From Verrucomicrobiota bacterium (lineage in GTDB: Bacteria > Verrucomicrobiota > Verrucomicrobiia > Chthoniobacterales > UBA10450): 51,536 bases of DNA. A model generated the notes under the pieces. It did not search any database, was not told where the DNA came from, and saw only the letters and a program-made list of their open reading frames with translations. The DNA lies in assembly GCA_003220155.1 (NCBI GenBank), contig QHRO01000244.1:1-51536 (forward strand), given 5' to 3'. Both the position numbers and the translations under genes were made by a program. Below are positions 1,951-31,246 of the stretch, piece after piece; the first letter of the stretch is position 1; each line of letters opens with the position of its first letter.

Positions 1951-3297
1951 GTGCACTCGTTCCACTACTGCGACGGGCGGCTTTTTTGCGAAGACGTCGA
2001 TGTCACTGTCGCCGCGGAGAGATTCGGCACGCCGCTTTATTTATATAGTGCGAGCACGATTCTCGATCATTATCAGCGATTAGATGATGCGCTCTCGAGT
2101 CTCGATCATTCGATCTGTTACGCCGTTAAAGCGAATACGAATCGGGCCATTCTGCGCTTGTTGCGTGATGCCGGTGCTGGATTCGATATCGTGTCGGGCG
2201 GTGAGCTGTTTCGCGTAATCAATGCCGGCGCCGATCCGGCAAAGTGCACCTTTGCTGGCGTAGGAAAATCGCACCAGGAAATCGAGTATGCTCTCGAACA
2301 AGGCGTTTATTCGTTCAATATCGAGAGCGAAGCCGAACTCGATTACATCAATGAGATCGCGTCGGCCAAAAACCAACGCGCGCCGATTGCGCTGCGAGTG
2401 AACCCCGATGTCGAGGCGCAGACGCATCAATACATCTCCACTGGTAAGAGCGAGAACAAGTTCGGCATCGCGCTCGAATGGGCCGCGAAAGTTTACGAGC
2501 GGGCGAGCAAAATGCCGGCCATCAGTATTCGCGGCGTGCAGATGCACATCGGGTCGCAGATTACCGAAGCGGCACCGTTCGTGGCTGCGATCGAAAAAAT
2601 TGCACCGCTGGTTTCCGAATTGAAAATCAAATATGCGATCGAGTTCTTCAGCATCGGTGGCGGATTGGGGATTGCCTATGAATCATCGATCGCTAGTGGG
2701 AGCGGCGATTGGTGGACGTCGCAGCGATCGCATCCGCTTACGATCCAGCAATACGTCGATGCCATCCTGCCGCCGCTAACGAGACTTGGGCTGCGAATTT
2801 TGCTCGAGCCCGGTCGATTGCTGGTGGGGAACGCGGGGATTTTGCTGACCCGTGTTCGTTACATCAAAGAAACAGCGCAGAAAAAATTCGTCATCATCGA
2901 CGCCGGCATGAACGATCTCATTCGTCCCGCGCTTTACGGGAGCTATCATGAAATCGTCCCGGTGGAGAAGATTACCGAGCCCTCACCTCAATCCTCTCCC
3001 TCAGGGAGAGGAGGCCGCGAAGCGGCCGGTGAGGGTAAAACAAACAAGATCGATGTCGTTGGACCGGTTTGTGAAAGCGGTGATTTTTTTGCCCAGGATA
3101 GGGAAATGCCAGAGTTGCGCGCGGGCGATTTGCTCGCGGTCATGAGCGCAGGCGCCTACGGATTTGTCATGGCGTCCAATTACAATTCCCGACCGCTGCC
3201 GGCGGAAGCGCTCGTCCGAGGGGATAAAGTTGCCCTTATTCGCAAGCGACAAACGCTGGCGGAACTTACGCGCGACGAGGTCGATGCATCTTTCTAA
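1951..3297 (+). CDS. lysA: Diaminopimelate decarboxylase
   Basis: PLP enzyme converting meso-diaminopimelate to lysine and CO2, the last step of lysine synthesis, in the cytoplasm. The PLP lysine lies in CYAVKANTNRAILRL near residue 60. The glycine-rich phosphate-binding loop FFSIGGGLGI, the substrate arginine segment LEPGRLLVGNAG and the partner-subunit motif GPVCESGD are all present. The start is GTG 1951, since no earlier ATG gives a better N-terminus. At 448 residues it is about 20 longer than usual. The excess is residues ~344-362, encoded by a palindromic repeat inserted in frame between YHEIVPVEKIT and VVGPVCES. The stop overlaps the convergent membrane gene by a few bases. A 54-codon copy of its 3' end lies at 4994-5158. 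Confidence 0.95.
   Translation: MHSFHYCDGRLFCEDVDVTVAAERFGTPLYLYSASTILDHYQRLDDALSSLDHSICYAVKANTNRAILRLLRDAGAGFDIVSGGELFRVINAGADPAKCTFAGVGKSHQEIEYALEQGVYSFNIESEAELDYINEIASAKNQRAPIALRVNPDVEAQTHQYISTGKSENKFGIALEWAAKVYERASKMPAISIRGVQMHIGSQITEAAPFVAAIEKIAPLVSELKIKYAIEFFSIGGGLGIAYESSIASGSGDWWTSQRSHPLTIQQYVDAILPPLTRLGLRILLEPGRLLVGNAGILLTRVRYIKETAQKKFVIIDAGMNDLIRPALYGSYHEIVPVEKITEPSPQSSPSGRGGREAAGEGKTNKIDVVGPVCESGDFFAQDREMPELRAGDLLAVMSAGAYGFVMASNYNSRPLPAEALVRGDKVALIRKRQTLAELTRDEVDASF
2980..3035. repeat. REP-like palindrome inserted in frame in lysA
   Basis: A 56-nt GC-rich palindrome bounded by CCCTCACC and GGTGAGGG, with an inner CCTCTCCC/GGGAGAGG pair. It lies inside lysA without breaking the frame and encodes a low-complexity Pro/Ser/Gly/Arg stretch. 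A related element with the same outer and inner arms lies in the gap near 23028-23065. Confidence 0.75.
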
Positions 3298-27841: not shown

Positions 27842-28246
27842 ATGAAACAAGTATCCAAGACTGAACTTTCACCCGACAACGGCTGCGTCATCGATACCAA
27901 GTGGAAAGTGGGGCCGTTGAGTTATCACGCCTGCGCCGCCATGCCAAAAGACGTCCACGGCAAACCGCTCGATGGAAATTTGCGGCTGCCTGAGATCATC
28001 ATTTACGATCACACCGGCTTCAAAGGCGCCTACGCCCGCACCAATCTCAGCTTCCATTATCTGGGCGATTTCTGGAACGACCGCATCAGTTGCGTCATTG
28101 TCGTCAGTGGCGTCTGGCGTTTTTATCGCGACGAATACTACAAGGGCGATTACTGGGACCTGGGCCCGGGCTTTTACGAATCCTTCTTCACCGAAGCCGG
28201 CCCGGACGACGTCGTGAGCTCCTTCCAAGCCATCGCGCTGACGTAA
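27842..28246 (+). CDS. Beta/gamma-crystallin-like protein
   Basis: 134 residues, no signal peptide. The block IIIYDHTGFKGAYARTN is a Greek-key motif start, with the aromatic-rich partner FHYLGDFWNDRISCVIV and a second strand set WRFYRDEYYKGDYWDLGPG. This is the layout of a single beta/gamma-crystallin domain, known in microbes as small Ca-binding or stress proteins. The Ca-binding consensus (N/D-N/D-X-X-S/T-S) is not clear, so calcium binding is uncertain. ATG 27842 is used. It lies just before the integron-like cassette region, and the candidate R' box at 28354 comes after it. Confidence 0.75.
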   Translation: MKQVSKTELSPDNGCVIDTKWKVGPLSYHACAAMPKDVHGKPLDGNLRLPEIIIYDHTGFKGAYARTNLSFHYLGDFWNDRISCVIVVSGVWRFYRDEYYKGDYWDLGPGFYESFFTEAGPDDVVSSFQAIALT

Positions 28247-28416
28247 GGCTTATCAGGTCGGGGAGCGGCGTCCCGGTGCGCCATAATTACTCGTTCCTGT
28301 AATGTTATACGAAAAAATGTTCGCCTTTAATCGCGAACTTTCGCCTATATCTCGTTAGGTGCAGAAACACGCATGATTGGCCCAACGATATCAATCTCCC
28401 CTTCTTCGCGTATGGA

Positions 28417-29219
28417 GTGTTCCGAAAGGGAGAACTCGGCTTTCTCAGCATCTCCGATTTGGTTAGTAGGGTTGTGGAGCCGTGTTCCGTTACGGGAAGC
28501 CTGCTGCTACGTGACGGTTTGCCGATCATCGATCCAGCAGGACGTTCAAATGTCCCGGGCAGTCTGATCTCCTTCAGAGAAGGACTCAACGGCGAGGCAT
28601 ATGACAGGATTGATCGGCTGGAGCCCCAACGGCAGTACCGATGGGAAGAAACGACGACTGCTAAAAGTGTGCGGTGCAACTATCTTATCGGGCGCTCCCC
28701 ACATAAAAGTAGTGTGCCAGCGGATGAAGGATGGAATGGACGAAACGATCCGCTTTTCACCTCCGCTCTGGAGGTGGTCAACGAGAGTTTGGCGGCCTAC
28801 TCGGATTTTGACTCGAATTTAAAGCCGATGTTCAGGCTGCAAATGGCTTATCTTCTGCTTTGGTCGTCGATGGAACGCTACGCTTCACTGCGCTTTCATC
28901 TCGGCGACCGCGCTGTCGACAAACTGATGCAGATTGCTGATGATCCCAGTTCGGCCAACTTCTGAGAAGAGTAGTCAAGCGAACGCACCGGGTGCAACGC
29001 GCCGATAGGCCGACCGATCACTACGAACTAACTCCAGATGACCCCAGGAACTCCCTGAATTACTACTACCAGATCCGCTCAAACATCACACATCGAGGCA
29101 AGGGAGTTGTCCGTGATCACGACATCGTCAGAGCTTCACTGAAAGAGTTACTCGAGATTTTCACAGAGCTTGTGAGGGCCGCTTTCGAATCCTCGTCAAA
29201 AGGAGCACCTAACCAATAG
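28417..29219 (+). pseudogene. HEPN-like protein, cassette-borne, frameshifted
   Basis: Unknown family. The frame shown opens at GTG 28417 but reads back further (HDWPNDINLPFFAYGVFRK), so the true start may lie nearer 28359, with one more frame break between. A block LFTSALEVVNESLAAYSD, then FRLQMAYLLLWSSMERYASL is followed by an early stop at 28965. Adding one G (TTCTGG for TTCTG) restores RRVVKRTHRVQRADRPTDHY and a C-terminal YYYQIRSNITHRGKG to 29219. RSNITH fits the R-X4-H motif of HEPN RNase domains, as in Apea-type proteins. The stop lies inside the attC site, as in integron cassettes. Confidence 0.6.
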
Positions 29220-29330
29220 CTGGAGCCAGCCCCTGGCCGCTGTGAAGTCCACCTTTGATTTTATGAAACAGTTCCCCATATTTGCCACGCTCGCCGCCGC
29301 CAGCGGTGGCTCAGCTCTTTCTCGTTAGAT
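29207..29330 (+). other. Integron attC recombination site
   Basis: R'' box ACCTAAC (29207-29213) and R' box GTTAGAT (29324-29330) fit RYYYAAC and GTTRRRY and are near complements (ACCTAAC against ATCTAAC). Inside, after unpaired spacers (CAAT and CTTTCTC), the left arm AGCTGGAGCCA pairs with the right arm TGGCTCAGCT, leaving one extra G on the left: the extrahelical base of attC sites. Pairing continues imperfectly inward (CCCCTGGCCGC against GCCGCCAGCGG). At 124 bp it is within the normal size range. It spans the stop of the upstream gene, as cassettes do. Confidence 0.8.
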
Positions 29331-29332
29331 GG

Positions 29333-29485
29333 ATGAAGCCCGATCGCGTTTTCCTTGATTTCGGCGCTCCTGACAGCGGTCGAATACGACTTCTGGATTC
29401 CAAGCAGCTACAGGTGCAAACGCCTTATCCAGGTTTCGCATCGTTCTATCGGTCGCGCGAAGACTCACAAACTGAAGCTCACTGA
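29333..29485 (+). CDS. Small cassette ORF (50 aa)
   Basis: Unknown protein of 50 residues starting MKPDRVFLDFGAPDSGRIRL, with QTPYPGFASFYRSREDS near the end and no membrane segment. The ATG is three bases after the R' box of the attC site, and the stop is two bases before the next candidate R'' box, the spacing expected of an integron cassette. It may be a truncated remnant or a real small protein. Its only support is the frame and this context. Confidence 0.4.
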   Translation: MKPDRVFLDFGAPDSGRIRLLDSKQLQVQTPYPGFASFYRSREDSQTEAH

Positions 29486-29487
29486 AC

Positions 29488-29544
29488 GTCTAGCCAGGGC
29501 ACCGCGGCCAACCGCTCACAGCTCGTCGGATAGCGGAGTTAGAT
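29488..29544 (+). other. Candidate short attC site
   Basis: R'' is GTCTAGC (29488-29494, one mismatch to RYYYAAC) and R' is GTTAGAT (29538-29544). The inner arms CACCGCGG and CGTCGGATA pair with two extra bases. At 57 bp it would be a normal short attC. Pairing is much weaker than in the site at 29207, so this is only a candidate. Confidence 0.4.
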
Positions 29545-29628
29545 CTTAATATTTGATATTTCTAACACTGACCGACCGTTGCTGGTCGCCGATGTACAAG
29601 GATACTAGAAATCAATCAACCAAGTTTC

Positions 29629-30114
29629 GTGAATTCCACGATCACGCCCGAACAATTCGAGATGCTGCTTCCGCTTGCCTGTGAGTGGGCGTCCTCGCAG
29701 GAACAGCGCATCCTCGCAACAGGCGAAGCATTATCGGACACGATGCTTGCGGATGCGCGTCTTCTCGGCGTCGCCGCCCCGGAGCGGGTCCGACTACTAT
29801 ACGTCTCTGAGACTCCCATCCCCGACGATCCAGCGTTACGCGCTGCTATTCTGGAAACACAATTTCTCTCGCCGCTCACCCGCGGTCTGACCCTGCGCTA
29901 TGGCATTTTCATCCGTTCCGACTGCAGATTCGACCGAACGATGGTTATCCACGAACTAGGGCACACCGCGCAGTATGAACGCCTGGGCGGGTTCGAGCCT
30001 TTTCTCCGGCGGTATCTTTTTGAATGTCTTACGATCGGCTACCCTGAAGCTCCGATGGAGCAAGAGGTGATCGAACTCACAGCGCGCATTTGTGGATCGC
30101 AAACACAAACCTGA
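29629..30114 (+). CDS. HELGH-motif protein, possible zincin metallopeptidase
   Basis: 161 residues, GTG start at 29629 (no ATG available). The zinc-binding motif HExxH appears as TMVIHELGHTAQYERLGG near residue 112. Upstream is a helical region and a block LRAAILETQFLSPLTRGLTL. A third zinc ligand could be E144 or E149 near the end (EAPMEQEVIELTARI). It has no signal peptide. It lies in the candidate cassette region, same strand as the HEPN-like gene. It was not matched to a named peptidase family. Confidence 0.65.
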   Translation: MNSTITPEQFEMLLPLACEWASSQEQRILATGEALSDTMLADARLLGVAAPERVRLLYVSETPIPDDPALRAAILETQFLSPLTRGLTLRYGIFIRSDCRFDRTMVIHELGHTAQYERLGGFEPFLRRYLFECLTIGYPEAPMEQEVIELTARICGSQTQT

Positions 30115-30153
30115 CCCGCCGATCGACCCTATGTTCGTATTCATTTTCATCAA

Positions 30154-30233
30154 CGGGCAAGATGCGCGTTGGCCCCACAGCCAAGGTGGCTGTGCTACAA
30201 TGTGGTCTCGCAGGAGCTCGCCCCTCCATTTTA
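30154..30233. repeat. Family B palindrome, copy 4, with part of family C
   Basis: GGGCAAGATGCGC hairpin and CACAGCCAAGGTGGCTGTG, followed by GTCTCGCAGGAGCTCGCCCC, the right half of family C. It is the same composite as at 14610-14695. It lies between the HELGH gene and the stop of the DAO gene. A GTTAGGC (30262-30268) next to it fits an R' box. Confidence 0.75.
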
Positions 30234-30262
30234 AAGCGCGATCAACGTTCTTGGTTTGCGCG

Positions 30263-31246
30263 TTAGGCAATCGCCCTCACTTCTTCGGCGCAGGCCCACG
30301 AGAGAGTGAAGCCGGCACCGCCGTGGCCGTAGTTGTGAATGACGGAGCGGCCATCGCCTAATTTTTCCAGATCGAGGCGCACTCCAGAATTTCGGAACGG
30401 GCGCAGTCCGACCTTCACGGAGATCACGGGCGGCGGGTCGATCCCGAGGACGCGGCTGCATTCGGAAACGATCGCGGCGGTGTCGCCGGATGAGGGCTCG
30501 CGATTTTCGCAGATCGAATTGGTGCCTCCGAAAACGCAGTCGTGCGCGCGCGGAATGGCGTACATCAATGGGGCATCGTTGCAGATAATTGCCTGCGCCA
30601 GATCGATCTTTGGCACAATCGCGACCTGACCGCGGTGCGCTTCCAAATCCGAATCGTGAACCAGGTCACGCGCGCCAATACCGGAGCAATTGATGATCAC
30701 ATCAAAATCGCGCGGAATTTCGTCCACCTTACTAATATGGGCGGATTGGATTCTGCCACCGGCGGTGCGCAACCGCTTGGCCAGGTAATCGAGGTAAATT
30801 GTGGCGTCGATGAGGGGAACAGTTAAGGCGTAGCCGCTTGTGAAGGTGGTTGGGAAAGCAGGAATAGTTAGAGATCCCTCGGTCCGAGCCGGACTGGCGT
30901 TTTCGCTCGGGACGACAGAAATCGAATAAGCTCCCAGGTTTTTCGCCCAATCGGGGATTGCAATTTCGCCGGCGCGCGTGAATTGACGGAGCTCGACCAT
31001 CGAAACGCCGCTTTGCGAATCACGCGCCAGATCGCGCAATCGTTCGTAAGTGATTAGCGACCAGGGAATGACTTTGTCGACTGGCTCGGCATCATACGGA
31101 AACCAAACGGCCGCAGCTGCGCCGGATGTTGTTTGCTCACCGGTTTCGTCGGCGAGAATTGTCACATTCCATTCGTGTTCGGCGAGAACAACGCCGCAAG
31201 TCAGTCCGGAAACACCGGCGCCGATGATGGCTGCGCGTTTTCGCAC
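30263..31246 (-). CDS. FAD-dependent D-amino-acid oxidase family protein
   Basis: Oxidative deaminase of D-amino acids or a close relative, FAD-bound. The 327-residue protein has the N-terminal dinucleotide fold IIGAGVSGLTCGVVLAEH, a second block SGAAAAVWFPYDAEPVDK, the DAO segment LTVPLIDATIYLDYL, VIINCSGIGARDL, YAIPRAHDCVFGG and the C-terminal VGLRPFRNSGVRL with NYGHGGAGFTLSW. These match the DAO family (DAAO/DASPO), with the substrate arginine in GLRPFR. Residues ~110-127 come from half a family A repeat inserted in frame. The start ATG at 31246 lies 4 bases after the alcohol dehydrogenase stop, so they share a transcript. Confidence 0.9.
   Translation of the reverse strand: MRKRAAIIGAGVSGLTCGVVLAEHEWNVTILADETGEQTTSGAAAAVWFPYDAEPVDKVIPWSLITYERLRDLARDSQSGVSMVELRQFTRAGEIAIPDWAKNLGAYSISVVPSENASPARTEGSLTIPAFPTTFTSGYALTVPLIDATIYLDYLAKRLRTAGGRIQSAHISKVDEIPRDFDVIINCSGIGARDLVHDSDLEAHRGQVAIVPKIDLAQAIICNDAPLMYAIPRAHDCVFGGTNSICENREPSSGDTAAIVSECSRVLGIDPPPVISVKVGLRPFRNSGVRLDLEKLGDGRSVIHNYGHGGAGFTLSWACAEEVRAIA
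30871..30915. repeat. Half family A element in frame in the DAO gene
   Basis: GAGATCCCTCGG, then the 14-bp module GTCCGAGCCGGACT (30882-30895), then GGCGTTTTCGCTCGGGACGAC: the right half of family A as in copy 2 (16183-16275). On the coding strand it adds about 15-20 residues (SVVPSENASPARTEGSL) between two conserved DAO blocks. Confidence 0.75.

What the first reader, a model, noticed from the sequence alone, without database searches (positions are those of the whole stretch)
29207..29330. A well-formed integron attC site without an integrase (orphan cassette cluster)
Seen in the sequence: R'' (ACCTAAC) and R' (GTTAGAT) fit the attC consensus and each other. The L-box arms AGCTGGAGCCA and TGGCTCAGCT pair with one unpaired G, the extrahelical base that guides single-strand recombination. 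The site spans the stop of the upstream gene, and the next ATG is three bases after R', as in cassettes. No integrase gene is present in 51 kb, so by definition it is CALIN-like. A second weaker site lies at 29488-29544, and an R'-like GTTAGGT at 28354 sits in the same TCTCGTTAG context. Integron cassettes are little described in this group.
Basis: partly seen in the sequence, partly recalled or inferred. Interest (0 to 1): 0.8.

Follow-up and report, generated by a model that had tools for sequence, protein, structure and literature searches.

The report
Integrase-less integron docking site with cassettes
This stretch of a soil Verrucomicrobia genome is an integron (a gene-capture platform) that lost its integrase gene but kept its docking site and gene cassettes, and related species carry many such orphan docking sites that still gained different genes.

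Summary
The attC is real. A covariance model built only from 24 attC sites of other genera (most in arrays beside integron integrases) finds 29207-29330 at 98.4 bits (E 7.8e-28), the only significant hit in 51.5 kb.

(1) GTTAGGT at 28354 is not an attC remnant but the R box of an attI: 28303-28360 is 85-91% identical to the stretch just downstream of the integrase in three integrons of the same family, of the type with integrase and cassettes in one direction. (2) The 'cluster' holds one good attC; the second site (29488-29544) scores 7 bits and is at best decayed.

The locus is therefore attI + cassettes with the integrase missing. Elsewhere this genome has about 19 attC hits and a short integrase remnant. 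At the same site relatives carry different first cassettes or none.

Following the attI: 67 copies in 45 of 83 family genomes, 57 without an adjacent integrase, 44 of those followed by attC. At one host gene, orthologous orphan attIs with the same left junction carry zero cassettes or one, each different. This suggests that integrase-free attIs are reused, probably by an integrase in trans. That step is inferred.

The parts
28303..28360 (+). attI site (direct box GTTATAC 28304-28310, crossover box GTTAGGT 28354-28360), integrase missing
   Evidence: 85-91% identical to the stretch downstream of the integrase in L097, L113, L115; 67 copies in the family, attC downstream
28355..29324 (+). cassette 1; open frame 28375-28965 resembling gamma-glutamylcyclotransferase (below Pfam cut-off), then a second frame to the stop at 29219, so probably a broken gene
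   Evidence: no relative in 83 family genomes
29207..29330 (+). attC of cassette 1 (R'' 29207-29213, R' 29324-29330)
   Evidence: 98.4 bits, E 7.8e-28; structure and covariation
29325..29538 (+). probable cassette 2 with a 50-aa frame at 29333-29485
   Evidence: boundaries by attC1 and a GTTAGAT at 29538; no Pfam match
29488..29544 (+). possible decayed attC
   Evidence: 7.0 bits; 5' half matches an attC half, 2 of 100 shuffles as good
29539..30133 (+). probable old cassette with a 161-aa gene (29629-30114; HELGH motif, peptidase-like by inspection)
   Evidence: shared with G007 and G008 at the same locus; its homologue in G005:C4 is directly followed by an attC hit
27842..28246 (+). left host gene (beta/gamma-crystallin domain), conserved in relatives
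30263..31246 (-). right host gene (FAD-dependent oxidoreductase, DAO)

Best explanation
An integron of the type whose integrase gene points toward attI once stood between the crystallin-domain gene and the FAD oxidoreductase gene. Its integrase was lost before the window's species and its relative G007 split, leaving a bare attI with cassettes. Cassettes enter at G28354|TT of attI: the bottom strand of a cassette's attC (here 29207-29330) folds into a hairpin, the integrase cuts it and joins it to attI, and replication resolves the product. Shown: attI and attC identity, the missing integrase, and different cassettes in relatives at the exact point. Inferred: the earlier complete integron, the reaction itself, and that an integrase elsewhere in the cell (in trans) did the later insertions. 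In the present genome no complete integrase is assembled and the later sites have decayed, so the array is probably now frozen.
For: attC: R1 98.4 bits, covariation in the lineage model. attI: homologues beside integrases; 44 of 57 orphan copies have attC downstream within 4 kb and only 1 has attC upstream. Missing integrase: the own genome has only a fragment matching residues 1-31 of the family at C128:2952-3044, plus XerC/XerD-like genes. Decay series beside this attI type: near-full-length, broken, internally deleted, absent. Window and G007 share spacer and attI (79% over 28252-28358), yet their first cassettes are unrelated (46% identity against a random median of 50%). Polarity: the distal gene is shared by window, G007 and G008, the proximal ones differ. 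Independent locus in genus g164: same host-gene/attI junction, zero cassettes (G336, G359) or one that differs between species, identity right of G|TTAG at the random level in all 21 pairs of seven loci. The same-direction integrases form one clade, support 100/99.
Against: No recombination assay. MAGs are incomplete, so an intact integrase could be unassembled. Cassette differences could partly come from losses from longer arrays. 26 of 45 genomes with this attI have no integrase over cut-off in the assembly, so a trans source is not always visible. No integrase remnant is left beside the window's attI. The attC is at the weak end of fold energies.
Confidence: 0.82

Rival explanations
1. Frozen relic only: all cassette differences arose while each lineage still had an integrase beside the attI, and the integrase was then lost separately in each, as in Xanthomonas.
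For: Xanthomonas arrays were dynamic before integrase loss (PMC12444791); some integrases beside this attI are caught decaying; attC2 is decayed and relatives' sites are degenerate.
Against: Window and G007 share the integrase-free spacer, and g164 species share one host-gene/attI junction, so the adjacent integrase was already gone before the cassettes diverged.
Confidence: 0.3
2. Cassettes were dropped at an arbitrary genomic site (attG-type off-target insertion) by an integrase elsewhere, without any attI.
For: Off-target insertion is a published route to integrase-less arrays (PMC8618304).
Against: The left end is a conserved attI, recurring at about 36 other places always upstream of the cassettes.
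Confidence: 0.08
3. The array differences come only from deletion out of one long ancestral array, with no insertion after the integrase was lost.
For: G355 and G005 look like imprecise deletions.
Against: Zero-cassette attI alleles joined to the host flank and single unrelated cassettes in different species; exact joints at attI, where attI and attC share only about ten bases.
Confidence: 0.2
4. Chance palindrome or assembly artefact.
For: The fold energy alone is not exceptional.
Against: E 7.8e-28 against an independent model; the longest exact match between the window's attI or attC and the own-genome loci checked is 21 bases, too short for a misjoin at typical word lengths.
Confidence: 0.01

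Closest known systems
CALIN (cluster of attC sites lacking an integron-integrase; PMC9024848)
   Same: attC and cassettes without an integrase in the neighbourhood
   Different: has a recognisable attI at its head; only one attC passes the model here, below the default of two
Treponema chromosomal integrons (PMC3607928)
   Same: integrase transcribed toward attI in the related complete integrons; one species (T. phagedenis) with attC but no integrase
   Different: here the attI is present in many copies at many loci, most without an integrase
Xanthomonas ilvD integrons and CALINs (PMC12444791)
   Same: repeated loss of the integrase, arrays kept at fixed chromosomal sites
   Different: no dispersed attI copies in the passages read; here cassettes differ although the integrase-free junction is shared
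Delta-attI-type gene cassettes of mobile integrons (PMC12901181)
   Same: attI sequence found away from its own integrase
   Different: there a truncated attI stands at a cassette end (abstract); here a whole attI heads an array in the chromosome

Membership tests
attC site | R''/R' and L''/L' inverted repeats, G|TTRRRY crossover, unpaired L'' bases | tested here: met
attC site | sequence and structure homology to attCs in integrase-bearing arrays | tested here: met
   98.4 bits, E 7.8e-28; 90% identity to L113:16275-16395
attC site | recombined by an integron integrase | not testable with these tools
   needs an assay
attI site | lies next to an integron integrase in complete integrons and precedes the cassettes | tested here: met
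   homologues beside the integrase in L097, L113, L115; attC downstream in 44 of 57 orphans
complete integron | integron-integrase gene | tested here: not met
   none on this contig; only an N-terminal remnant elsewhere in the genome
CALIN | at least two attC sites without integrase (IntegronFinder 2 default) | tested here: inconclusive
   one strong attC, one at 7 bits; IntegronFinder itself was not run
gene cassette | presence/absence between relatives with exact G|TT boundaries | tested here: met
   for window against G007; same test at the g164 locus

The most novel reading that the evidence does not exclude
In this family of soil Verrucomicrobia the integron is a distributed system: many solitary attI docking sites at separate chromosomal loci, without an integrase beside them, each loaded and unloaded with one or a few cassettes by an integrase acting in trans.
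Probability: 0.4. Interest if true: 0.72.

Novelty: new variant of a known kind. Interest (0 to 1): 0.5.

Why it matters
attI is usually treated as one site per integron, beside its integrase, and is hard to recognise outside the classic classes. Here it can be recognised by homology, and orphan copies outnumber integrase-linked copies 57 to 10. That makes two open questions testable: how integrase-less arrays form, and whether an integrase serves distant sites in nature. It also gives a ready attI and attC reference set for a group whose cassettes are little studied.

Tried and rejected
GTTAGGC at 30262 as a last attC R' box: it holds the stop codon of the oxidoreductase gene, relatives lack it, and no attC half precedes it. 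28303-28360 as an attC: 9.4 bits only. Rfam: nothing credible. Integrase remnants left of the orphan attIs: none with a sensitive tblastn. IntI candidates at C22 and C53 of the own genome: XerC/XerD-like, not integron integrases. A defence role for the cassette genes: no match worth naming. First attempts at the reading frames of cassettes 1 and 2 were in the wrong frame and were corrected (then 64, 68). How the attI copies spread to about 36 loci is not resolved: left flanks differ completely, and empty sites at two loci of the genus show no clean insertion edge.

Full report
The observation. The described boxes, arms and stop codon are at the stated coordinates. To test against chance I took 24 attC sites from contigs of other genera of the same family, contigs that carry an integron integrase. 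They were aligned, and the consensus structure has 24 pairs, 12 of them with compensatory changes, and two bulged bases on the L'' side, as in textbook attCs. The covariance model R1 from this set finds 29207-29330 with 98.4 bits and E 7.8e-28 in the whole window. The next hit has E=1.

The attI. In these the integrase points toward the site and the cassettes follow in the same direction, as described for Treponema (PMC3607928). Other integrons of the family have the usual divergent layout with a related attI. The same-direction integrases form one clade with 100/99 support. So the window has attI, cassettes and attC, and lacks only the integrase.

The genome. The window lies on a 3.35 Mb MAG of 354 contigs. 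Record titles of genomes with this attC type are nearly all soil Verrucomicrobia, Spartobacteria, Chthoniobacterales or Udaeobacter; the window's own name was not shown. The genome holds 20 attC hits including the window's, a second orphan attI on C35 behind an ftsH-like gene, and an integrase fragment matching residues 1-31 of the family on C128, beside attCs and a classic-type attI. No complete integron integrase is assembled.

The same place in relatives. The flanks are shared. G001 and G002 have almost nothing between the two host genes, and G010 has no cassette match next to the left one. G005 has a remnant. G006, G007 and G008 carry different cassettes at TCTCGTTAG points. Window and G007 share spacer and attI, then identity falls from 86% to 46% (random median 50%) just after G|TTAG. 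Window, G007 and G008 share the last gene, 29629-30114. New proximal and old distal cassettes is the usual polarity of integron arrays (established knowledge). The first gene of the window array has no relative in 83 family genomes, as is common for cassettes; its reading frame is interrupted, so it is probably broken, or the base is a sequencing error.

The wider pattern. A 66-base query over the attI finds copies in 45 of 83 family genomes. I fetched flanks of 60 regions. Of 67 sites, counting the window, 10 have an integrase directly upstream, intact or decayed, and 57 have none. The orphans fall into about 36 distinct left flanks. 44 of 57 have an attC downstream on the same strand, 41 of them within 900 bp, and only one has an attC upstream; most of the rest sit near contig ends. 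26 of the 45 genomes have no integrase over cut-off.

A second locus tests reuse. In genus g164 the attI is fused to the end of one host gene with the same junction (...GCGAATTAGACG) across species. Seven loci compared pairwise share left flank (74-87%) and attI (74-97%), but are at random identity right of G|TTAG. G336 and G359 have attI joined directly to the right host gene with no cassette. G361 and G362 have one cassette each, ending in an attC whose R' box is completed by the same host flank, and no cassette sequence is shared among the arrays compared. Other species of the genus lack the attI altogether. Because the junction is shared, the absence of an adjacent integrase is older than the cassette differences. 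Exact replacement at attI is hard to obtain by homologous recombination, since attI and attC share only about ten bases there. The simplest reading is insertion and excision by an integrase acting in trans. This is inference: some of these genomes show a complete integrase elsewhere (G351, G358, G362), others do not.

Prior knowledge. CALINs are thought to arise by off-target insertion, integrase loss or rearrangement (PMC8618304). Integrase-less arrays at fixed loci are described in Xanthomonas (PMC12444791) and Treponema (PMC3607928). I found no paper in the held library on dispersed orphan attI sites; the library is partial.

Limits. All genomes are MAGs. At least two contig pairs look shared between MAGs (L196/L199 identical; L204/L207 identical around the attI), so genome counts are approximate. 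The attI search started from the window's own site, so the copy numbers hold for this attI type only. 'Orphan' means no integrase match within about 1.5 kb. How the attI itself spread is unexplained.

Verdict. A real attC in a real, integrase-less integron, correctly read by the first stage. The feature in the window is a relic of a known kind. The family-wide set of orphan attIs is the part a specialist would not expect.

Noticed in passing
L097 (G001:C84), minus-strand positions 3132 and 4301: The integrase gene is flanked on both sides by attI-like sites in the same direction, as if the integrase with its attI had itself been inserted like a cassette into another attI.
   Followed up: partly
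G000:C35:8286-8335 (L189:2587-2636): Second orphan attI in the window's genome, behind an ftsH-like gene, followed by two open frames without a recognisable attC; related attI copies follow the same gene in four relatives.
   Followed up: partly
L010 (G000:C128): Classic-type attI, several attCs and an integrase reduced to its N-terminus.
   Followed up: partly
L196 and L199; L204 and L207: Identical sequence in contigs binned into different MAGs (G007/G006; G299/G008), which points to cross-binning.
   Followed up: no
window 30149-30229 and 30863-30923: Two short repeats dispersed in many copies over this genome and its relatives (roughly 81-98% identical).
   Followed up: no
L117, L118, L125: Three Acidobacteria MAG contigs carry the same attC arm as the Verrucomicrobia sites: gene exchange or misbinning.
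   Followed up: no
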